From Mesorhizobium sp. NZP2077 (GTDB lineage: Bacteria > Pseudomonadota > Alphaproteobacteria > Rhizobiales > Rhizobiaceae), in contig NZ_CP051293.1 in assembly GCF_013170805.1 (NCBI RefSeq), forward strand, positions 4,718,001 to 4,782,000: 64,000 bases of DNA, given 5' to 3'. The notes beneath the pieces are model-generated. The model did not search any database. It saw only the letters and a program-made list of their open reading frames with translations, and was not told the origin of the DNA. Below, piece by piece: positions 24,848 to 35,720 of the stretch. Within the stretch, counting starts at the first letter, position 1, and every line of letters starts with the position of its first letter. The translations under genes and the position numbers were made by a program.

Positions 24848-24923
<76 letters not shown>

Positions 24924-25140
24924 GCTCCGGCGCGGACCTTTAAGCGGTCGAGACCGGCTTCGCAAGGCCAAATGAACAGGCGACGCCGTGTTCGCGGGCC
25001 GGATTTGTCAACAAAACGCCGGCTGTCAAAAAACCTTCTCCAGTTTGCTGTTATGATGGTTTGGTACGCTTGACACCCGGTGGCGAACCCCTTATCCAGC
25101 GCCCCAACGACGAACACGGCTGACACGTGCTCGTCAATGC

Positions 25141-25217
25141 GCGGGTGTAGCTCAGTTGGTTAGAGTGCCGGCCTGTCACGCCGGAGGTCGCGGGTTCGAG
25201 CCCCGTCACTCGCGCCA
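25141..25217 (+). tRNA. tRNA-Asp (anticodon GTC)
   Basis: The cloverleaf starts GCGGGTGTAGCTCAGTTGG, has anticodon loop CTGTCAC between CCGGC and GCCGG, T-loop GGTTCGAGCC, and ends CACTCGC-G-CCA with CCA encoded. It diverges from the tRNA-Val gene 217 bp away. A CAAGGG/CCCTTG hairpin follows at 25225-25243 and may aid 3' end formation. Confidence 0.97.
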
Positions 25218-26294: not shown

Positions 26295-27224
26295 TCAGCC
26301 CTTCGCCAGCAGTGCTTCGACTTCCTGCAATGTCGGCATCGACGGTGCCGTGCCGGGGCGCGTCACCGAAATGCCGGCAACGGCGCAGGCGAAGCGTACA
26401 GCCTGCAGCGGCTCCACGCCGCGCGACAGCGCTGCGGCGAAGCCGCCATTGAAAGCATCCCCCGCACCGGTGGTCTCGACGACCGGCCCGGCGCTGATGG
26501 CGGGGATATGCTCGGAGCGGTCCTTCGTGTGCAGCAACGCGCCCTTGTCGCCGAGCGTGACGATGACCGTGCCGACGCCCTTTTCGAGCAGCTTGCCGGC
26601 GGCGGCGCGAGCGTCATCGACCGAGGAGACTTTCATCCCGGTCAATTCCTCGGCCTCGGTCTCGTTCGGCGTGAGATAGTCGCAGAGCGTGTAGATGCGG
26701 TCGGGAAGCTTTGCCGCGGGAGCGGGGTTGAGGATGGTGGTCACCCCTGCTCCGCGCGCGATCTCCAGCGCCCGCATCGCGGCATCGATCGGCTGTTCGA
26801 GCTGCGTGACAAAAACGCCGGCGCCACGGATCAGATCGGCGTTGGCCTCGATATCGGCCGGCGAGATCAGCATGGCCGCACCGGGACTGACGATGATGGC
26901 GTTGTTGCCGCTGCCCTCCTCGACGAAGATGTAGGCCGCACCCGTATAGCTGTCAGGCGTGTCGATGACGGCGCTCTTCACACCGGCATCCTGCCAGGTC
27001 CGCTTGGCCATGTCGGCGAAGGCATCGACGCCAAGCCGGGTCAGGAAGGTGGTGTCGGCGCCGAGCTTGCCGGCGGCAACGGCCTGGTTCGACCCTTTGC
27101 CGCCCGGACCCAGCTTGAACGAATTGCCGAGGATCGTCTCGCCCATGCGCGGTTGGCGATCGGCGCGATAGGCGGTGTCGGCGACAAAGACGCCCAATAC
27201 GATGACAGGCTTGCTGGTGGCCAT
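26295..27224 (-). CDS. rbsK: Ribokinase-type PfkB sugar kinase
   Basis: 309 residues with both PfkB signatures: GPGGKGSNQAVAAGKLGAD near 38-56 and TTGAGDAFNGGFAAA near 250, where the Asp of GAGD is the catalytic base. It phosphorylates a sugar, ribose by closest family resemblance, in the cytoplasm. ATG 27224 lies 4 bp after the stop of the mutarotase gene, so the two are co-translated. The surrounding transporter and isomerase genes leave the true substrate open. Confidence 0.88.
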   Translation of the reverse strand: MATSKPVIVLGVFVADTAYRADRQPRMGETILGNSFKLGPGGKGSNQAVAAGKLGADTTFLTRLGVDAFADMAKRTWQDAGVKSAVIDTPDSYTGAAYIFVEEGSGNNAIIVSPGAAMLISPADIEANADLIRGAGVFVTQLEQPIDAAMRALEIARGAGVTTILNPAPAAKLPDRIYTLCDYLTPNETEAEELTGMKVSSVDDARAAAGKLLEKGVGTVIVTLGDKGALLHTKDRSEHIPAISAGPVVETTGAGDAFNGGFAAALSRGVEPLQAVRFACAVAGISVTRPGTAPSMPTLQEVEALLAKG

Positions 27225-27228
27225 GCTG

Positions 27229-27681
27229 CTACTCCGCATCCGGCGGCACGACGCCCTTGCGGAAGGCGAAGCAGCCATAGAAGCGGCGTTCACCGGTCTG
27301 GATGACGCAATAGGCCTGCTTGGCGCGCTCGTAGAAGGCGTAGCGCTCGACGGAAATCATCGGCCAGGCCTTGCCTTCGGCCTTGTCGATCTCCTTTTGC
27401 ACTTCCTTCTGCACCGGCGGAATCTCGTCCGGCTTGCCGACGATTTCCATGCGCGCCGCGGAATCGTCGACGAACGTATCCAGCGGATAAAGCGATAGCA
27501 CCGCCTTCACCACTTGCGCCGCCGACGCGTCGATGCGCAGCAGCTTGCCGTGCACGGTCCGCTTCGCCACCGAATCCGACGGGAAATTGGTGTCGGCGAT
27601 GATCAGGTCATCGCCATGGCCCATCGCCCGCAATGCCTGCAGCACGTCGGCATTGAGCAGCGGATTTATGCCTTTGAGCAT
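27229..27681 (-). CDS. RbsD/FucU family sugar mutarotase
   Basis: The 150-residue protein interconverts anomers or ring forms of a sugar. The N-terminus MLKGINPLLNADVLQALRAM and HGDDLIIADTNFPS are family hallmarks; the C-terminus has RYAFYERAKQAYCVIQTGE and ends RRFYGCFAFRKGVV. These features are nearer FucU (L-fucose mutarotase) than RbsD. It lies between the MalK-like ATPase gene (57 bp upstream) and the ribokinase gene. Confidence 0.9.
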   Translation of the reverse strand: MLKGINPLLNADVLQALRAMGHGDDLIIADTNFPSDSVAKRTVHGKLLRIDASAAQVVKAVLSLYPLDTFVDDSAARMEIVGKPDEIPPVQKEVQKEIDKAEGKAWPMISVERYAFYERAKQAYCVIQTGERRFYGCFAFRKGVVPPDAE

Positions 27682-27738
27682 GATAGTCCTCGTGAAGTCC
27701 GTTTGAGATCAGAGACGTTGAGATCAGAGACGCCGAGA

Positions 27739-28797
27739 TTAGAGACGCTTGCCGGTCTCGGCGTCGAAAAGATGGATCTGGTCGAGCCTCGGCTTCAGGG
27801 TCAGCGTGTCGCCGGGCTTGAAGTCGTGGCGTTCACGGAACAGTGCCACCATCTCGCCCTCGCCGAAGCGCAGGAACACCAGCGTTTCCGAGCCGGTCGG
27901 CTCGACCACCGAAATCTTCGCCGCCACACCATCGGGATAGATCTCCAGATGTTCCGGGCGCACGCCATAGACGACGGCCTGCCCGTCCTGCGCGGCGCTG
28001 TTCGGGGCAATCGGGAACAGCGTGCCAGCAATCTCGACGCCCAACCTGTCGCCCTTGCGCATGACCCCCTTGAGCAGGTTCATCGAAGGCGAACCGATGA
28101 AGCCGGCGACGAACAAATTGGCTGGCCGGTCGAACAGTTCCAAAGGCGCGCCGACCTGCTCGATGCGGCCGTCGCGCATGACGACGATCTTGTCGGCCAT
28201 GGTCATCGCCTCGATCTGGTCGTGGGTGACGTAGATCGTGGTGGTCTTCAGGCGCTGGTGCAGTTCCTTGATCTCAGTGCGCATCTGCACGCGCAGCTTG
28301 GCGTCGAGATTGCTGAGTGGCTCGTCGAACAGGAACACCTGTGGATTGCGCACGATGGCGCGCCCCATCGCCACGCGCTGGCGCTGGCCGCCGGAGAGTT
28401 GCCGGGGATAGCGCTTCAGATAGGGATTGAGGTCGAGGATGTCGGCGGCGCGCTTGACCCGCTCGGCGACCTCGGCCGGATCGGTTTTGCGCAGCTTGAG
28501 GGCAAAGGCCATGTTCTGCTCCACCGTCTTGTGCGGGTAGAGCGCGTAGTTCTGGAATACCATGGCGATGTCGCGCTTGGCCGGCGGCAGATGATTGACG
28601 ACGCGGTCGCCGATGGCGATCGTGCCGCCGGAAACGGTCTCCAGCCCGGCCACCATTCTGAGCAGCGTGGACTTGCCGCAACCCGAGGGGCCAACCAGCA
28701 CCACGAACTGTCCGTCGGCGATGTCGACGCTGACCTCATGTAGAACCTTGACGGTTCCAAACGCCTTGGCCACCTTGCTGATTGCGACTTGAGCCAT
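27739..28797 (-). CDS. CUT1 sugar ABC transporter ATP-binding protein (UgpC/MalK-like)
   Basis: 352 residues: a nucleotide-binding domain with Walker A GPSGCGKSTLL, signature LSGGQRQRVAMGRA, Walker B VFLFDEPLSNLD and switch VTHDQIEA, then a MalK-type OB-fold tail from about residue 240. It powers import through the permeases encoded divergently from 30.8 kb. ATG 28797 begins the normal family N-terminus (MAQVAISKVAKAFG); an upstream in-frame start lacks support. Confidence 0.93.
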   Translation of the reverse strand: MAQVAISKVAKAFGTVKVLHEVSVDIADGQFVVLVGPSGCGKSTLLRMVAGLETVSGGTIAIGDRVVNHLPPAKRDIAMVFQNYALYPHKTVEQNMAFALKLRKTDPAEVAERVKRAADILDLNPYLKRYPRQLSGGQRQRVAMGRAIVRNPQVFLFDEPLSNLDAKLRVQMRTEIKELHQRLKTTTIYVTHDQIEAMTMADKIVVMRDGRIEQVGAPLELFDRPANLFVAGFIGSPSMNLLKGVMRKGDRLGVEIAGTLFPIAPNSAAQDGQAVVYGVRPEHLEIYPDGVAAKISVVEPTGSETLVFLRFGEGEMVALFRERHDFKPGDTLTLKPRLDQIHLFDAETGKRL

Positions 28798-29073
28798 CGT
28801 CCTCCCTCTCGTTGCGGTGAAGCTAGCCAACGCCAACGGCAAGGGCAAGTCGGTCTCTTATAGATAAAAATCCATTCTCGTTGACACGGCATCCCGTTGT
28901 GCGAATAGTGATAGTTGCCAATCCGAACGCCGGACCTTTCACCCGGAAAGCGGAACTCCAGGCGACGCAGGGTGGGGTCCCACGTCCCCGTTTTATCGAG
29001 GAGAACCGCCAACGTCTCGGCGTCCGAAATATTGGCATATCAATTCACGGCTTTGTTCTGGGAGGAATGGTAG

Positions 29074-30741
29074 ATGAGAGTCGGTCTTTACGAGAAAATG
29101 GTCGGCGCGGGAGCCACCCGGCGCGACATATTGAAGGGTGCGGCCAGCATGGCCGCCATCGCCGCCGCATCCGGCGCCGGGCTTGGCGCGTTCACGCGTC
29201 CGGCCTCCGCCGCCAGCGAGCTGCGCACGAAAATCCTGCAGATCCCCGGTGTCGGCAAGGGTCAGCCAACCGACGCCGACTTCCAGAAGGTCGGTGAGCT
29301 TTGCCTTGAGGCAACCAAGGCCAACGTCAAGGAAGGCGAATTCGCCGGCGTTGAGCTGACCTTCATGGGTCTCAACAACCAGAACCTGCACAACGTGCTG
29401 TTCCGCGGCTTCCTGAAGCCGTGGGAAGCCTATACCGGCGCCAAGATCAGTTGGATCGACCTGGCGCAGGCCGACTACAACGCCCGCCTGCAACAGTCGA
29501 TCGCCACCGGCACCGTCGACTTCGACATCATCGAGATGGGCGCGCCGTTCGAAGGCGATGTCTGCGGCAAGGGCCTGACGTCAGAGATGCCCGACTGGGT
29601 CAAGAAGCAGATCGATTTCGACGACCTGGTCAATTATCTGAAGCCGCCGGTCGGTACCTGGGACGGCAAGCAGTATCGTGTGACCATCGATGGCGACACA
29701 CACAATTTCAACTACCGCACCGACGTGTTTGCCGATGCCGACCTTGCCAAGCAGTGGAAGGACGGTGGCGGGGCCGGCGAATGGGGCGTGCCGAAGACCT
29801 GGCAGCAGGTGCAGGCCGTCACCAAGTTCCTCAAGGGCAAGAAATTCAAGGGCCAGGACGTCTATGGCTATCTTGACGCGCCCAAGCCCTGGGGCGGGTT
29901 CGGCTTCTACTTCCTCGGCAGCCGCGCCACGGCCTACGCCAAGCACCCCGACGACAAAGCCTGGCTGTTCGACGCCGATACGATGAAGCCGCGCATCAAC
30001 AATCCGGCCTGGGTGCGCGCCATCCAGGACGTGATCGACGCGCTGCCCTCCGAACCGGCTGACCAGATCAACGCCGATCCGAACACCACCGGCTTCCAGC
30101 AGTTCCTGGCTGGCACCGGTTCGATGATCCCCTGGTGGGGCGACATCGGCTCCAACGTCAAGACCAACGATTCCTCGGTCATCGGCGACGTCACCGGCTT
30201 CTCGATCCTGCCGGGTTCGGACGATGTCTACAATTCCAAGACAGGCGCCTGGGAGAAGCTCGCCAGCGGGCCGAACTATTCGCCGAACTGCGCCTATCTC
30301 GGCTGGGGCGTCTATGTCATGGCCCGCGTCGACGCCGACGAGAAGAAGAAGAAGGCGGCATGGTCCGCCGCCGCCCATCTCGGCGGCAAGGACCTGTCGA
30401 TCTGGACGGCGATGTATCCGTCCGGCTTCCAGCCCTACCGCAACTCCCACTTCGATATTCCGGAATGGGTGGCGGCCGGCTACGACGAGGCCTTCATCAC
30501 TTCCTACCTCAAGTCGGAAGGCGATTCCTACAACCATCCGAACGCGGCGATCGAGCCACGCATCCCCGGCATCTTCCAGTACTATTCCGCCGCCGAGGAT
30601 ATTCTGGCCAACACCTTCGCCGGCAAGATGAAGGCACAGGAAGGCGCCGATGCCATCGCCGCCGCCTGGGAAAAGCTCACCGACCAGATCGGCCGCGAAA
30701 AACAAGTCAAGCTCTACAAGGCCTCGCTCGGCCTGGCCTGA
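29074..30741 (+). CDS. ABC transporter extracellular solute-binding protein, Tat-exported
   Basis: The 555-residue family 1 binding protein is larger than MalE. A twin-arginine motif TRRDILKGA (Arg16-Arg17) and a hydrophobic stretch ending PASA near 46 predict folded export by Tat. YRTDVFADADLAKQWKDGGG and the MIPWWGDIGSN region are typical of the PotD/UgpB-like superfamily. GGAGG 8 bp upstream fixes ATG 29074. It heads a plus-strand operon with two permeases and a small membrane protein, and its ATPase is encoded divergently. Confidence 0.9.
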   Translation: MRVGLYEKMVGAGATRRDILKGAASMAAIAAASGAGLGAFTRPASAASELRTKILQIPGVGKGQPTDADFQKVGELCLEATKANVKEGEFAGVELTFMGLNNQNLHNVLFRGFLKPWEAYTGAKISWIDLAQADYNARLQQSIATGTVDFDIIEMGAPFEGDVCGKGLTSEMPDWVKKQIDFDDLVNYLKPPVGTWDGKQYRVTIDGDTHNFNYRTDVFADADLAKQWKDGGGAGEWGVPKTWQQVQAVTKFLKGKKFKGQDVYGYLDAPKPWGGFGFYFLGSRATAYAKHPDDKAWLFDADTMKPRINNPAWVRAIQDVIDALPSEPADQINADPNTTGFQQFLAGTGSMIPWWGDIGSNVKTNDSSVIGDVTGFSILPGSDDVYNSKTGAWEKLASGPNYSPNCAYLGWGVYVMARVDADEKKKKAAWSAAAHLGGKDLSIWTAMYPSGFQPYRNSHFDIPEWVAAGYDEAFITSYLKSEGDSYNHPNAAIEPRIPGIFQYYSAAEDILANTFAGKMKAQEGADAIAAAWEKLTDQIGREKQVKLYKASLGLA

Positions 30742-30756
30742 TCGTAGCGTGAACCT

Positions 30757-30786
30757 GGGGTCCGGCGACGAGAGCCGCCGCACCCC
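30757..30786 (+). other. Intercistronic hairpin after binding-protein gene
   Basis: GGGGT-CC-GGCG pairs with CGCC-GC-ACCCC across an 8-base loop, giving an interrupted stem with no T-run. Like the hairpin at 21582 it follows a binding-protein gene and probably limits 3' decay of that message. Confidence 0.5.
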
Positions 30787-30840
30787 GTCCTGACCGGCGT
30801 GGCCGGTCGCGAAGTGCCTTTTGCAAAACGGACGAGACGC

Positions 30841-31962
30841 GTGGCTGACCAGACTTTGCCCACCAATGATTGGCCGGCAAACGCCGTCCCATCCGACCTC
30901 ATCCCGCCAGGCCGCAAACGCCTCGGCTGGGCGCTGATGGCGGCTGCAACGCTCGGCCTGCTGGCAACGATCCTTGTTCAGATCCTTTGCAAGAGCGAAG
31001 TCGACACGATCGGCTTCGAGACCTGGCGTCCCGTCGTCTATGCCTATGTGCTGTGGGGCGTGGCGATCGGCATCGGCCAGGTGCTGACGCGTGGCGAGGA
31101 CGGCCAGCGCGCGCTGTTCCTGCTGCCGGCGCTGCTCTTCACGATCGCCATGGTGATCTTCCCGACGCTGTTCGGTTTCTACATCGCGCTGACCGACTGG
31201 AACCTTTCCTCCTTCAGCGGCCGCAGGTTCAACGGGCTCGACAATTTCTGGCAGATGCTGGCCGATCCCTACTATCGCAATGCGCTGTTCAACATGGTTC
31301 TCTACGTGCTCGCCGTGCTGGTCGAGTATGTCATCGCCTTCGGCCTGGCGCTGCTGCTCAACGCGCAGATCCGGGCGCGAAAGTTCTTCCGCGTCGTCTT
31401 CCTGATGCCGCTGATGCTGTCGCCCGTGGCGGTGTCGTGGATGGTCGGCAAGTCGCTGATGGAATATCGCTTCGGACCGGCAGCCACACTGGCGCGCCAT
31501 CTCGGCTGGGAAAACCCGGCGTTCTTCTCGGATCCGATCATCGCCCGCATCTCGATCATGGTGCTGGATGCCTGGACCTTCATCCCGTTCATGATGATCA
31601 TGCTGCTCGCCGGCCTGCAGGCGATGTCACGCGAGATCCTCGAAGCGGCACGGGTCGACGGCGCCAATGCGTGGCAAACCTTCTGGCAGGTCACCTTCCC
31701 GCTGATGCTGCCGGTGTCGGTGACGGCGGTCATCCTGCGCATCATCTTCAAGCTGAAGCTGGCCGACATCATCATCACGGTGACATCAGGCGGGCCTGGC
31801 GGCGCCACCGATTCCGTCTCCAGTTTCATCTACCGCGAATATCGCGACCGCTCGAATGTCGGTTACGGCACCATGCTGGCGATGGCCTATCTGGTCATCA
31901 TCGTCGTGTTCGTGACCTGGCTCTTGAAATTCGCCAACCGCTTCGTGCGCAACGTCAACTGA
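30841..31962 (+). CDS. Sugar ABC transporter permease (MalF type)
   Basis: 373 residues, about eight membrane helices. The first pair (WALMAAATLGLLATILVQIL and YAYVLWGVAIGIGQVL) precedes the standard six-helix core. The ATPase-contact EAA loop reads ILEAARVDGANAWQTFWQVT. It pairs with the MalG-type permease encoded 11 bp downstream. The start is uncertain: GTG 30841 follows GGACGAG; GTG 30799 is also in frame. Confidence 0.88.
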   Translation: MADQTLPTNDWPANAVPSDLIPPGRKRLGWALMAAATLGLLATILVQILCKSEVDTIGFETWRPVVYAYVLWGVAIGIGQVLTRGEDGQRALFLLPALLFTIAMVIFPTLFGFYIALTDWNLSSFSGRRFNGLDNFWQMLADPYYRNALFNMVLYVLAVLVEYVIAFGLALLLNAQIRARKFFRVVFLMPLMLSPVAVSWMVGKSLMEYRFGPAATLARHLGWENPAFFSDPIIARISIMVLDAWTFIPFMMIMLLAGLQAMSREILEAARVDGANAWQTFWQVTFPLMLPVSVTAVILRIIFKLKLADIIITVTSGGPGGATDSVSSFIYREYRDRSNVGYGTMLAMAYLVIIVVFVTWLLKFANRFVRNVN

Positions 31963-31973
31963 GCGGTGGGATC

Positions 31974-32891
31974 ATGAGCGTTCAAACCACCGAATACACC
32001 GTCTCCGAAATCCGCTCGCCGGCGAGCTTCATCACCAGCCGTATCTTCATCTACGGCGCGCTTGTCTTCTGGGCCTTCATCTGCCTGTTCCCGATCTACT
32101 GGACGATAACGACCTCGTTCAAGTCGGCGGTCGACGTCACGCAGGGCCATCTCATCCCCTTCATCGACTTCCAGCCGGATTGGAAGGGCTGGCGTTCGCT
32201 CGGCCTCTCGCCGGACTCGATCTTCCAGACCTCCACGGTGCGTGACGAGTTCTTCAAGCGCTTCATGAATTCGGTCATCACCTCGGTTGGGGCGTCGAGC
32301 CTCGCCATCGTCATCGGCAGCCTCGCCGCCTACGGCCTCACGCGCTACCGCTATCACTTCGCCTGGTTCAAGAACGAGGATATCTCGTTCTTCTTCCTGT
32401 CGCAGTTGATCCTGCCGCCCGTGGTGCTGGCATTGCCCTTCCTGGTGCTTTACCGGGAGGTTGGACTGCTCGACACGCGCATCGGGCTGATCCTGCTCTA
32501 TACGCTGATGGTGCTGCCGATCGTCATCTGGATCATGCGCGACCAGTTCAACTCGATCCCCGTAGAGCTTGAGGAAGCAGCCCTCGTCGATGGGCTGTCG
32601 ATCTGGGGCGCGTTTTTCCGCATCGTGATGCCGATCGCGCTGCCGGGCATGGTCGCGGCCTTCATCCTCGCGATGGTGCTGTGCTGGAACGAGTATTTCT
32701 TCGCCGCGCTTCTGACCTCGACCGACGCCAAGACCATTCCCGTCATGGTAGCGAGCCAGACCGGCTCACAAGGCATCAACTGGTGGTCGATGGCAGCGCT
32801 TGCCACGGCCGCGATCGCGCCGCTGGCCGTTATTGGCATCGCGCTGGAACGCTATCTCATCATGGGCATGACCGCGGGAGCCGTGAAGTAG
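31974..32891 (+). CDS. Sugar ABC transporter permease (MalG type)
   Basis: 305 residues with six helices and the EAA loop LEEAALVDGLSIWGAFFRIV. WAFICLFPIYWTITTSFKS at the N-terminus is typical of the second CUT1 permease. It forms the channel with the MalF-type partner. The next gene starts 2 bp after its stop, so the small membrane protein is part of the same operon. Confidence 0.92.
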   Translation: MSVQTTEYTVSEIRSPASFITSRIFIYGALVFWAFICLFPIYWTITTSFKSAVDVTQGHLIPFIDFQPDWKGWRSLGLSPDSIFQTSTVRDEFFKRFMNSVITSVGASSLAIVIGSLAAYGLTRYRYHFAWFKNEDISFFFLSQLILPPVVLALPFLVLYREVGLLDTRIGLILLYTLMVLPIVIWIMRDQFNSIPVELEEAALVDGLSIWGAFFRIVMPIALPGMVAAFILAMVLCWNEYFFAALLTSTDAKTIPVMVASQTGSQGINWWSMAALATAAIAPLAVIGIALERYLIMGMTAGAVK

Positions 32892-32893
32892 TC

Positions 32894-33208
32894 ATGGCCG
32901 GCCCATATTGGTTCGCACGCAATATCCGGGTCGGTTATGTCGGACGCGACCGCTACGGCAAGGGCGTCATGCCCATCGCCTGGCAGGGGCGCGCCGTCGT
33001 TGCCGGTTTCGTCGTGGCCATGCTGTTTGGCGGGGTGATCATGCTGCTGATCGGCTTGTACACACGGTTTTTTGCACTCGGCATAGCGATCTACGTCACC
33101 CTGGCCTTTGGCGGCGCCGGCACCTTCCTCTGGGCCGTGGTCACCAAAAGCGATCCGGACAAATCGATCGCCGAGTACCGGGCGGAGCGGCAGAAAAACC
33201 GGGCTTAA
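32894..33208 (+). CDS. Small two-helix membrane protein of a sugar ABC operon
   Basis: The 104-residue protein has a basic N-terminus (WFARNIRVGYVGRDRYGKG), two membrane helices (VVAGFVVAMLFGGVIMLLIG and FALGIAIYVTLAFGGAG) and a charged tail. I know no function. Its tight spacing to the permease gene suggests an accessory of the transporter. It ends overlapping the convergent creatininase-family gene by 4 bp. Confidence 0.75.
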   Translation: MAGPYWFARNIRVGYVGRDRYGKGVMPIAWQGRAVVAGFVVAMLFGGVIMLLIGLYTRFFALGIAIYVTLAFGGAGTFLWAVVTKSDPDKSIAEYRAERQKNRA

Positions 33209-33948
33209 GCCTTCAGGATAGCGCGCAGGTGGTCCAGGATCATGGCGACGCCCTTTTTACCGAGTTCCGCCGAGGCATCCTTGGCATCAGCCGTGTACCA
33301 GCCTGTGTTGTCGGCGAAGCGGGCGGCATCGACGGCCTCCGGACATAGCGCCAGCATCAGCGACGTCTCGCCGATGCCGGCATGGTCGAACGGATACTTG
33401 CCGTTCATGGCGGCGGGCATCAGCGGATGCACCTGCACCCAGTTGAAGAAATTTTCCCCCGCGGCATGTCCGGCATAATAGTTGGCCATCGTCTCAGAGC
33501 CCCACCAGCCCTCGCCGCGCTGCTTCTCGAGGAAACGGAAGATCGCCTGCCTGCCGGCGGTCTTGAAGGCGAGGTCGGTCGGCATGCCGGCGGCGAAGTT
33601 TTCCGTCTGGTGATGGATGATGGCGTGGATGTTGCGGAAGCCGACGCGCAACAGGCTGTAGAACAGCTCCTCGCCGAACGGCGCCAACTGATTGCCGCCG
33701 ACCTGCACCGAGCCTGTGCCTTCAGGCGCCGCCACCGCGTAGCTCGCCGCACCGTAGTGGAAGGATGGCAGGATGACGACGTCCCTCTCCTTCTCGAACA
33801 GTTCCAGCGTCTTGATGACGGCCAGCGTGTCCATGCCGACGGCCATGTGCTCGCCATGGTATTCGAGCACGCCGAGCGGCAGGGCGACCGGCCAGTTCTC
33901 GGTGATCGCCTTGCGGATCTGGTGCGGCAGCATCAGCTCATAGCGCAT
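33205..33948 (-). CDS. Creatininase family protein
   Basis: 247 residues of the creatininase/ArfB/MftE amidohydrolase fold. The first metal motif is clear (PLGVLEYHGEHMAVGMDT, with Glu, His and Asp ligands), and HYGAASYA follows. The second motif, usually NGHGGN or GHYEN, reads IHHQTEN here, so one metal ligand may be changed. GIGETSLMLALCPEAVD is conserved in the family. It follows the SIS gene after 3 bp. A role in opening a ring or amide of the imported sugar derivative is a guess. Confidence 0.82.
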   Translation of the reverse strand: MRYELMLPHQIRKAITENWPVALPLGVLEYHGEHMAVGMDTLAVIKTLELFEKERDVVILPSFHYGAASYAVAAPEGTGSVQVGGNQLAPFGEELFYSLLRVGFRNIHAIIHHQTENFAAGMPTDLAFKTAGRQAIFRFLEKQRGEGWWGSETMANYYAGHAAGENFFNWVQVHPLMPAAMNGKYPFDHAGIGETSLMLALCPEAVDAARFADNTGWYTADAKDASAELGKKGVAMILDHLRAILKA

Positions 33949-33951
33949 GGT

Positions 33952-34518
33952 CTATTCCATGTTGGTGTGGCGGGCGCGCATGGCTTCGGGCGAGGCACCG
34001 GTCAGCGATTTGACCTTCAACACCATCACCTCGAACAGCAGGAACAGCGCGCCTTCGAACACCGAGCCCATCGGCAGCACCGAAGTCTTTTGCGGCCCCT
34101 GGTCATTGGCCATGGTCTGCGCCGGGATGAGCAGCGTGAAATCGGCCAGTTTTGCCGCACTACCTTCGGCCTGAGCGGTCAGTAACAGATTGGTCGCGCC
34201 GGCTTCGCGCGCGATGCGCATCAAGGTGAGCACCGTCGAAGTTTCTCCCGGTCCGGAACTGGCCAGGAAGACGTCGCCTGGGCCCAGCGGCGGCGTGGCC
34301 ATGTCGCCGACCACCGAGACCGGCAGGCCGAGATGATAGAGCCGCATGGCGAAACCCTTGACCTGCAAGGCCTCGCGGCCGCAGCCATAGACGACGATCT
34401 GCCCGGCATCGGCCAGCAGCTTGCAGGCGGCGTCGATGCGGTCCTCATCCACCCGCGCCAGCACGGCGCCGAGTTCGCTGAGCGCGGTCTTGAACAGATT
34501 TTCGCTTCGGTCGCTCAC
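33952..34518 (-). CDS. SIS-domain sugar isomerase-like protein
   Basis: 188 residues with one SIS domain: QIVVYGCGREALQVKGFAMR near 40-59, VFLASSGPGETSTVL near 83-97, and a conserved C-terminal FEGALFLLFEVMV. Similarity is to 6-phospho-3-hexuloisomerase (HxlB) and related phosphosugar isomerases. It starts with GTG and is coupled to the creatininase-family gene. Next to a PfkB kinase and a mutarotase it may isomerise the phosphorylated sugar. Confidence 0.82.
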   Translation of the reverse strand: MSDRSENLFKTALSELGAVLARVDEDRIDAACKLLADAGQIVVYGCGREALQVKGFAMRLYHLGLPVSVVGDMATPPLGPGDVFLASSGPGETSTVLTLMRIAREAGATNLLLTAQAEGSAAKLADFTLLIPAQTMANDQGPQKTSVLPMGSVFEGALFLLFEVMVLKVKSLTGASPEAMRARHTNME

Positions 34519-34697
34519 GGCAAAAACATCCTCGAAATCGTCCTGGGATTTTCCACGAACGGCTTGATTTCGTTCATGCTAGCAACCGCGAAAATGCGTG
34601 TCCAACACTGCGCGGCGCTTTTGCTTGATCACAGGCATGATAGTGTCATGTCAGACAAATCAGCTCAGACAGATTAACCCCGGGAAACCTGCAGGAC

Positions 34698-35720
34698 ATG
34701 AAGACACGGCATTTCGACCGCATCGGCAATGGCGGCATCACCTTTACGGAACTCGGCTTCGGCACGGCGCCGCTCGGCAATCTCTACCGCGCCGTTTCGG
34801 ACGCGGATGCCAATGCCACGCTCGATGCCGCCTGGACGACCGGCTGCCGCTACTACGACACCGCGCCGCTCTATGGGCTCGGCCTGTCGGAAACACGCCT
34901 CAACCCGTTCCTGCGCGGCAAGAAGCGCGACGACTATGTGCTGTCGAGCAAGGTCGGCCGCCTGATGCGCGCCTGCCCGCCGGAGCAGCGCACGGGCATC
35001 GGCAAGTTCTTCGACACGCCGTCGCGTAGGGAAGTCTACGACTACAGCTATGACGGCCTGATGCGTTCCTTCGAAGCCTCGCTCGAGCGACTCGGAGTCG
35101 ACCGGATCGACATCCTGTTCGTGCACGATGTCGACATCTTCACCCACGGCAGCAAGCAGGCGTCAGACCAGCGCATCGAGGAATTCATGCGCTCGGGCTA
35201 TTACGGGTTGCTGTCGCTGCGCGACCAGGGCGTCATCAAGGCGTTCGGCGGCGGCATCAACGAATGGCAGGTTGCCCAGACGCTGGCCGAGCGCGGCGAT
35301 TTCGACCTGTTCCTGCTTGCCGGGCGCTACACGCTGCTCGAACAGGAGGCACTGACATCGTTCCTGCCGCTCTGCCAGAAGCGCGGCATCGGCATCGTGC
35401 TGGGCGGCCCCTACAATTCCGGCATCCTGGCGACGGGACCGAAGCCCGGTGCCTACTACAACTATTCCGAGGCGCCGCAGGACGTGCTGGACCGCGTGGC
35501 ACGCATCGAGGCGGTCTGCACCCGCCACAGCGTGCGCCTGATCGAGGCTGCGTTGCAGTTCCCGCTGCAGCATCCTTCGGTGGTATCGGTGATCCCTGGC
35601 GGCCAACGACCGGCGGAGGTCGAAAGCAACCGGGCGCTGCTCGACGCGAAACTGCCGGCAGCCCTTTGGGCCGATCTCAAGAAGGAAGGCTTGATGCGCG
35701 CGGATGCGCCGACCGCATAG
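34698..35720 (+). CDS. Aldo/keto reductase, D-threo-aldose/L-fucose dehydrogenase type
   Basis: A 340-residue TIM-barrel oxidoreductase. The catalytic Asp and Tyr lie in YYDTAPLYGLG, Lys in LSSKVGRLMR and His in LFVHDVD, giving a complete tetrad. GFGTAPLGNLYR and SVIPGGQRPAEVESN match the subgroup that oxidises L-fucose or D-arabinose to the lactone. The neighbouring FucU-type mutarotase supports a deoxy- or threo-aldose substrate. It is followed by a strong terminator. Confidence 0.87.
   Translation: MKTRHFDRIGNGGITFTELGFGTAPLGNLYRAVSDADANATLDAAWTTGCRYYDTAPLYGLGLSETRLNPFLRGKKRDDYVLSSKVGRLMRACPPEQRTGIGKFFDTPSRREVYDYSYDGLMRSFEASLERLGVDRIDILFVHDVDIFTHGSKQASDQRIEEFMRSGYYGLLSLRDQGVIKAFGGGINEWQVAQTLAERGDFDLFLLAGRYTLLEQEALTSFLPLCQKRGIGIVLGGPYNSGILATGPKPGAYYNYSEAPQDVLDRVARIEAVCTRHSVRLIEAALQFPLQHPSVVSVIPGGQRPAEVESNRALLDAKLPAALWADLKKEGLMRADAPTA

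What the first reader, a model, noticed from the sequence alone, without database searches (positions are those of the whole stretch)
26295..35720. Nine-gene sugar locus that fits no named pathway
A FucU-type mutarotase, PfkB kinase, CUT1 transporter with a large Tat-exported binding protein, extra two-helix protein, creatininase-family protein, SIS isomerase and fucose-dehydrogenase-like AKR lie together in four coupled blocks. A phosphorylating branch (kinase plus SIS) and an oxidising branch (AKR) coexist, and the creatininase-family step is unexplained; it could open a lactone or amide of an amino- or deoxy-sugar. This is the strongest candidate for an undescribed system here.
Basis: inference. 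Interest (0 to 1): 0.7.

Follow-up and report, generated by a model that had tools for sequence, protein, structure and literature searches.

The report
Uncharacterised rhizobial sugar-uptake gene cluster
A soil bacterium related to Mesorhizobium carries a conserved set of genes that probably imports and breaks down a still unidentified sugar; the parts are familiar, but their combination matches no pathway that I could find described.

Summary
Ten genes (not nine) at 26295-35720 form a sugar locus in four transcription blocks: ribokinase-like PfkB and FucU mutarotase with a UgpC-type ATPase; Tat-type binding protein, two CUT1 permeases and a two-helix protein; SIS and creatininase-family proteins; one aldo-keto reductase. 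It is a selected unit: SIS and AKR genes flank the creatininase gene in 21 of 21 genus loci read, and dN/dS is 0.04-0.18 for nine genes. In 199 family genomes sampled, the creatininase gene was seen only where the binding protein is (9 of 9, against 31 of 190 others). The two-helix gene is a lineage-specific extra (5 of 20 assessable genus loci). Outside the genus the locus often adds an FGGY kinase, an M42 peptidase and a BtpA/SgcQ protein. Most likely it imports a rare reducing sugar, mutarotates it, phosphorylates it (PfkB) and isomerises it (SIS), with a C1-oxidising side branch (AKR). Substrate and creatininase step are unproven. The SIS protein belongs to a distinct clade (Glu for Ser; Pro for Ser in the presumed phosphate loop) and is not a standard 6-phospho-3-hexuloisomerase. 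Ten paper searches (capped listings) showed no description. New variant of a known kind.

The parts
26295..27224 (-). PfkB kinase, ribokinase-like (309 aa)
   Evidence: TIGR02152 ribokinase 316.7 bits, cut-off 299.65; closest solved structures are ribokinases; Val where the four solved ribokinases printed have Asn; V in 39 and A in 5 of 44 locus relatives, Asn in none
27229..27681 (-). FucU/RbsD-family sugar mutarotase (150 aa)
   Evidence: PF05025; L-fucose mutarotase model 88.6 bits, under its cut-off of 141; closest structure 2ob5 (Atu2016, E 1.9e-62)
27739..28797 (-). CUT1 ABC transporter ATPase, UgpC type (352 aa)
   Evidence: NF008653 508 bits, cut-off 432
29074..30741 (+). Solute-binding protein with twin-arginine-like signal (555 aa)
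   Evidence: TRRDILK motif in the sequence; no Pfam family over cut-off itself, but a 68% identical relative in L042 hits SBP_bac_1 over cut-off; weak profile match to sorbitol-binding 4rya (E 0.0013)
30799..31962 (+). ABC permease 1 (387 aa, GTG start)
   Evidence: PF00528
31974..32891 (+). ABC permease 2 (305 aa)
   Evidence: PF00528; start by inspection
32894..33208 (+). Small two-helix membrane protein (104 aa), lineage-specific extra
   Evidence: No Pfam or NCBIfam family over cut-off; similar protein in 5 of 20 assessable genus loci, window included; 1 of 38 family loci, the window itself
33205..33948 (-). Creatininase-family protein (247 aa)
   Evidence: PF02633 92 bits; TIGR04448 64.9 bits, cut-off 235; model matches creatininases, E 1.5e-11; invariant E29, D40, H112, H113, E116 in 27 sequences
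33952..34518 (-). SIS-domain protein, 6-phospho-3-hexuloisomerase-like (188 aa, GTG start)
   Evidence: TIGR03127 152 bits, cut-off 160; GRE and SGPGET motifs, Glu155 and His184 kept
34698..35720 (+). Aldo-keto reductase (340 aa), closest solved relatives are L-galactose dehydrogenases
   Evidence: PF00248; 9w6y E 2.5e-30

Best explanation
A catabolic locus for a rare reducing sugar. The binding protein and CUT1 transporter bring the sugar in; the FucU-type mutarotase speeds interconversion of its ring or anomeric forms; the ribokinase-like PfkB kinase phosphorylates it; the SIS protein isomerises the sugar or sugar phosphate so that it can enter central metabolism. The aldo-keto reductase oxidises C1 of the same or a related sugar to a lactone, a side or overflow branch, and the creatininase-family protein, probably a metalloenzyme, acts on a product of that branch or on a conjugated form of the sugar. 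Shown here: gene identities, linkage, co-occurrence, selection, and a separate SIS-kinase-mutarotase cluster in another genome. Inferred: every reaction, their order, and the sugar. Leading substrate guesses are sugars with the D-arabinose/L-fucose arrangement (mutarotase and AKR) or the D-ribose/D-allose arrangement (kinase; neighbouring allose-like transporter in relatives).
For: Family assignments. A kinase and a mutarotase gene lie in the stretch of 32 of 38 binding-protein loci read in the family. In one genome (G193) SIS, RbsK and FucU genes sit together, away from the CUT1 locus, beside what looks like a CUT2-type importer (L108; importer by resemblance only), which suggests that the three act in sequence. 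Creatininase gene only in sampled genomes with the binding protein, 9 of 9 against 31 of 190 (not corrected for relatedness). dN/dS 0.038-0.184 for nine genes in two comparisons. In A. vitis and R. leguminosarum plasmids the same transporter, FucU and RbsK run on into a TIM-barrel isomerase-like gene, a CUT2 transporter, an RpiR regulator and a second ribokinase; the own genome has a TIM-RpiR-kinase set at another place.
Against: 13 of 38 family loci have none of SIS, creatininase, FGGY, M42, BtpA or AKR in the stretch read (some stretches are cut by contig ends), so these add-on steps are not needed for the core. SIS occurs in 14 of 31 SIS-bearing family genomes without the binding protein and sits in rhamnose-like and polyol-like loci, so it may serve several sugars. 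The presumed SIS phosphate loop is altered, against a plain sugar-phosphate isomerase. No L-fuconolactonase over the curated cut-off was found in the genome to follow the AKR (three weaker matches). No regulator gene lies in the locus and no inducer is known to me.
Confidence: 0.5

Rival explanations
1. D-arabinose-type pathway: FucU mutarotates D-arabinose (same arrangement as L-fucose at the compared carbons), PfkB makes D-arabinose 5-phosphate, SIS converts it to D-ribulose 5-phosphate, AKR oxidises D-arabinose or L-fucose at C1.
For: FucU closer to the L-fucose mutarotase model than to RbsD, both under cut-off; AKR nearest to L-galactose dehydrogenases; SIS weakly similar to arabinose-5-phosphate isomerase 2xhz (E 0.00046); a housekeeping isomerase would suffice if the kinase made ribose 5-phosphate (inference).
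Against: SIS is far closer to 6-phospho-3-hexuloisomerase than to arabinose-5-phosphate isomerase; its presumed phosphate loop is altered; kinase activity on D-arabinose untested.
Confidence: 0.2
2. Ribose- or allose-type pathway: the sugar has the D-ribose arrangement (D-allose, D-allulose or a ribose derivative); PfkB phosphorylates it and SIS, using the 2,3-enediol chemistry of its relatives (recalled), shifts the carbonyl or epimerises C3 towards fructose 6-phosphate.
For: Kinase over the ribokinase cut-off; the CUT2 binding protein next to the A. vitis locus has D-allose-binding proteins at ranks 4 and 5 of its PDB matches, ranks 1-3 having unspecific names, with RpiR regulator and second ribokinase nearby; SIS closest to 6-phospho-3-hexuloisomerases.
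Against: Kinase has Val or Ala where E. coli ribokinase has Asn; the allose-like transporter is a neighbour in relatives, not part of this locus, and is not beside the own-genome TIM-RpiR set; AKR has no role.
Confidence: 0.15
3. Two sugars share one importer: FucU and PfkB handle one, AKR (with creatininase as lactonase) the other by C1 oxidation.
For: Both branches present; one Rhodobacteraceae locus (L038) has an L-fuconolactonase-like and a galactarate-dehydratase-like gene near the AKR, both under their cut-offs; 13 of 38 loci do without the add-on enzymes.
Against: Creatininase, SIS and AKR genes stay together in 21 of 21 genus loci, permease 2 beside them in 19; no L-fuconolactonase over cut-off in the own genome.
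Confidence: 0.15

Closest known systems
D-ribose utilisation (rbs) of enteric bacteria (recalled)
   Same: Mutarotase of the RbsD/FucU family plus a ribokinase-family kinase behind an ABC importer
   Different: CUT1 not CUT2 importer, FucU-like not RbsD, kinase motif differs, plus SIS, creatininase and AKR genes
L-fucose / D-arabinose oxidation with a sugar 1-dehydrogenase and lactonase (recalled)
   Same: FucU-type mutarotase and an AKR near L-galactose dehydrogenases
   Different: No lactonase, dehydratase or hydrolase of that route among the ten genes; a kinase is present
6-phospho-3-hexuloisomerase (HxlB) of the RuMP pathway
   Same: SIS family, kept Glu and His near the C-terminus
   Different: Under the family cut-off; Ser to Glu and Ser to Pro in two loops; no 3-hexulose-6-phosphate synthase among the ten genes
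Creatininase and IolN (3-dehydro-scyllo-inosose hydrolase)
   Same: Creatininase fold and several shared acidic and histidine residues
   Different: Far under both cut-offs; motif HHQ[TS]E where creatininase has NGHYEN
E. coli sgc operon (recalled; SgcQ is BtpA family, SgcX is M42 family)
   Same: BtpA/SgcQ and M42 genes also occur in the wider form of this locus in relatives
   Different: PTS import and no mutarotase or ribokinase there (recalled); the window locus lacks both genes

Membership tests
CUT1 ABC sugar importer | UgpC/MalK-type ATPase, two PF00528 permeases, extracellular binding protein | tested here: met
   ATPase 508 bits over cut-off 432, both permeases PF00528; binding protein without own Pfam hit but a 68% identical relative is SBP_bac_1
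Ribokinase | TIGR02152 over curated cut-off | tested here: met
   316.7 against 299.65; the other ribokinase model, PRK11142, is not reached, 282.2 against 341
D-ribose rbs pathway | RbsD pyranase and CUT2 transporter with the kinase | tested here: not met
   RbsD model 35.4 bits against cut-off 93; transporter is CUT1
L-fucose mutarotase | NF011949 over cut-off | tested here: not met
   88.6 against 141 bits; PF05025 met
6-phospho-3-hexuloisomerase HxlB | TIGR03127 over cut-off and SGSGET-type loop | tested here: not met
   152 against 160 bits; SGPGET and GRE motifs
Creatininase (enzyme) | TIGR04448 over cut-off | tested here: not met
   64.9 against 235 bits; superfamily PF02633 met
IolN 3-dehydro-scyllo-inosose hydrolase | NF041098 over cut-off | tested here: not met
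   36.3 against 245 bits
L-fucose oxidative pathway | L-fuconolactonase encoded with the dehydrogenase | tested here: not met
   None among the ten genes; best own-genome match 149.8 bits against cut-off 400
Sugar 1-dehydrogenase of the AKR family | Enzyme activity on L-fucose, D-arabinose or L-galactose | not testable with these tools
   Only sequence similarity

The most novel reading that the evidence does not exclude
The SIS protein belongs to an unrecognised clade (GRE and GPGE motifs) that has given up the usual phosphate-binding loop and isomerises free, unphosphorylated sugars ahead of a sugar kinase, and the creatininase-family protein beside it is a second new sugar-processing metalloenzyme. 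To my knowledge (recalled) a SIS-fold isomerase for free sugars would be a new kind of activity for that fold.
Probability: 0.15. Interest if true: 0.65.

Novelty: new variant of a known kind. Interest (0 to 1): 0.4.

Why it matters
It gives a concrete, conserved set of genes whose substrate can be found with ordinary growth and enzyme tests, puts a genomic context on two poorly assigned protein groups (the HHQ[TS]E creatininase-family clade and the GRE/GPGE SIS clade), and links them, in relatives, to BtpA/SgcQ and M42 genes that also lack an assigned role here.

Tried and rejected
Two-helix protein as a core transporter subunit: rejected, because a similar protein (58% identity or more over 99 residues or more) is in only 5 of 20 assessable genus loci (L014 is cut at a contig end; L009 and L010 show only weak pieces; L020 has no permease 2 within its stretch) and in 1 of 38 family loci, the window. 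Creatininase and SIS as alternatives for one step: rejected, since both, either or neither occur. A replacement gene between permease 2 and the next enzyme gene: I looked at open frames in 14 loci, of which nine lack both SIS and creatininase; L082 holds two frames of 368 and 210 residues there, the rest nothing convincing; none was searched against families. FGGY kinase moved elsewhere in the own genome: best match only 29% identical. Own-genome BtpA as part of the system: it is 32% identical to the R. laguerreae one and lies downstream of importer genes that look CUT2-like. Structure model of the binding protein: mean pLDDT 43.9, not used. Structure model of the creatininase-family protein: fold confirmed, but confidence around the HHQTE loop is low (mean 62 for residues 111-120), so metal ligands are not settled. 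That the Asn of ribokinase contacts ribose is recalled, not from a call.

Paper searches (search listings only); some listings were cut (20 of 218, 15 of 227, 12 of 20). None of the listed titles is about this locus. Of PMC5587712 I saw one passage, a proteomics table row for a Brucella fucU. Most subscription papers are not in that library.
Full report
WHAT IS THERE. The window lies in a 7.7 Mb genome; the best-listed protein relatives are mostly from Mesorhizobium (best 120 of each). After two tRNA genes (24848-25217) and before an HU-like and a Lon-like gene (by resemblance of the open frames, not searched) lie ten genes at 26295-35720. Block 1 (-): UgpC-type ATPase, FucU-family mutarotase, ribokinase-like PfkB. 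Block 2 (+): Tat-type binding protein, two CUT1 permeases, a small two-helix protein. Block 3 (-): SIS protein, creatininase-family protein. Block 4 (+): aldo-keto reductase. Coordinates and family scores. Promoter and terminator patterns were near the shuffled expectation (3 against 1.9, 9 against 7.0) and say nothing.

IS IT A UNIT. In the genus sample, 31 of 36 other genomes have the creatininase ortholog (E at most 1e-146), 5 do not. I read 21 short loci: the 20 best, the own one included, and G015. SIS and AKR are in 21 of 21 and permease 2 in 19 of 21; one of the two misses is cut at a contig end. The remaining genus hits were not read, except G003 (L036), which has the same set without the two-helix gene. 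dN/dS against two relatives (L034, L035) is 0.038-0.184 for nine genes; the two-helix gene gives 0.28 against L035 and an unreliable 1.17 on a 29% identical match in L034. In 199 genomes sampled from the family, the binding protein is found in 40 (E at most 1e-60), SIS in 31 and creatininase in 9 (E at most 1e-20). All 9 creatininase genomes have the binding protein, against 31 of the other 190 (Fisher 2.4e-7); SIS genomes 17 of 31 (2.2e-6). These P values ignore kinship. A class sample of 289 gave the creatininase only in the own genome (E at most 1e-15). A scan of named genomes with the 53% identical creatininase of G222 as the query gave nine loci: the query's own contig (a Rhizobiaceae assembly) and eight Rhodobacteraceae or unplaced Pseudomonadota assemblies, with the same locus, some cut short by contig ends.

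THE WIDER LOCUS. I read 38 of the 41 binding-protein places, the window included (G015, G191 and G245 were not fetched at length; several stretches are cut by contig ends, and genes were called by identity thresholds set in the script). 32 of 38 have both an RbsK and a FucU-type gene. Add-on genes: AKR 17, FGGY kinase 16, M42 peptidase 15, BtpA/SgcQ 14, SIS 12, creatininase 6, two-helix 1; 13 of 38 have none of the six enzymes. The eight Rhodobacteraceae or Pseudomonadota loci, fetched because they have the creatininase, have FGGY and M42 in 8 of 8, BtpA and AKR in 7 of 8, SIS in 1 of 8. Family names of the extra genes. The own genome has no close FGGY ortholog (29% at best). So the Mesorhizobium form is either a reduced or an unextended form; the direction is not shown. 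In A. vitis and R. leguminosarum plasmids the importer, two FucU genes and RbsK continue into a TIM-barrel isomerase-like gene, a CUT2 importer, an RpiR regulator and a second ribokinase; the CUT2 binding protein of A. vitis has D-allose-binding proteins at ranks 4 and 5 of its PDB matches, ranks 1-3 having unspecific names. The own genome has a TIM-RpiR-kinase set (84, 78 and 65% identical) at 1.34 Mb.

THE SIS PROTEIN. It scores 152 bits against the 160 cut-off for 6-phospho-3-hexuloisomerase. I aligned 47 sequences, the window's included: 35 counted as in-locus (L034 repeats the genome of L009, L035 that of L016, and L033 has another transporter) and 12 from other loci; the split SIS of L081 and other short matches were dropped. 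Glu stands where solved relatives have Ser in the GRS motif in 47 of 47, Pro stands for the middle Ser of SGSGET in 46 of 47, the first Ser and the last Thr of that loop are lost in 5 of 35 and 12 of 12; Glu155 and His184 are kept in 47 of 47. That this loop binds phosphate in SIS proteins is recalled. Elsewhere the clade sits with an FGGY kinase and a class II aldolase (L114 by Pfam, L113 FGGY by resemblance), with rhamnose-like genes (L107: class II aldolase/dehydrogenase fusion and FGGY_C_2 kinase by Pfam, the rhamnose isomerase by resemblance; L110 by resemblance), with polyol-type dehydrogenases or sugar importers (L116-L118) and with RbsK-FucU (L108). In its own locus the loop keeps Ser and Thr in 30 of 35, so loss of phosphate binding is less likely there than in the other members; this counts against the novel reading for this very protein.

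THE CREATININASE-FAMILY PROTEIN. Fold confirmed by model (TM about 0.65) and sequence, but far under the cut-offs for creatininase and IolN. E29 and D40 are invariant and H31 nearly so in 27 sequences (one Asn); the third stretch is HHQ[TS]E, invariant at H112, H113, Q114 and E116. The two printed phmmer alignments with creatininases place this stretch differently by one residue, so which residues replace the creatininase ligands (roles recalled) is not settled. It is probably a metalloenzyme with an altered site; its reaction is unknown.

HOW IT MOST LIKELY WORKS. See best explanation. The argument for mutarotase, kinase and SIS in one line is their separate cluster in L108. The argument for a sugar other than ribose is that ribose 5-phosphate needs no special isomerase (inference) and that the kinase has Val or Ala in place of an Asn of solved ribokinases in 44 of 44 relatives, of which two rows, L028 and L037, are one contig (the role of the Asn is recalled). 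Whether the sugar has the D-arabinose/L-fucose or the D-ribose/D-allose arrangement cannot be decided from sequence; I give each its own rival entry.

WHAT IS KNOWN. Ten paper searches (listings only, some cut) showed no paper that describes this locus. The crystal structure 2ob5 of Atu2016, the closest solved relative of the mutarotase, carries only a 'hypothetical protein' name. Verdict: a real, conserved, uncharacterised sugar locus built from known parts; new variant of a known kind; interest 0.4.

Noticed in passing
L126 (own genome C1 1328001-1348000), 7519-10314: Own-genome set of TIM-barrel isomerase-like, RpiR regulator and second ribokinase genes, 84, 78 and 65% identical to the A. 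vitis genes that there follow the CUT1 locus; no transporter of that kind beside them here.
   Followed up: partly
L127 (own genome C1 5285001-5305000), 3696-10187: A distant BtpA/SgcQ-family gene downstream of genes that look like a CUT2-type importer in the own genome.
   Followed up: no
L055, L056, L057, L058, L059: A recurring set of BtpA/SgcQ, FGGY kinase, SDR, DeoR regulator and CUT1 importer in Shinella, Labrenzia, Thermus, Rhizobium and Salipiger plasmids; its role is not known to me.
   Followed up: no
L107 9.9-16.7 kb and L110 5.7-11 kb: Same SIS clade placed directly after a rhamnose-isomerase-like gene (by resemblance) and an aldolase/dehydrogenase fusion gene, suggesting a role in deoxy-sugar use.
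   Followed up: partly
   Followed up: partly
L081, about 13.4-13.9 kb: The SIS gene beside this binding-protein locus matches in two pieces, so it may be broken; not looked into.
   Followed up: no
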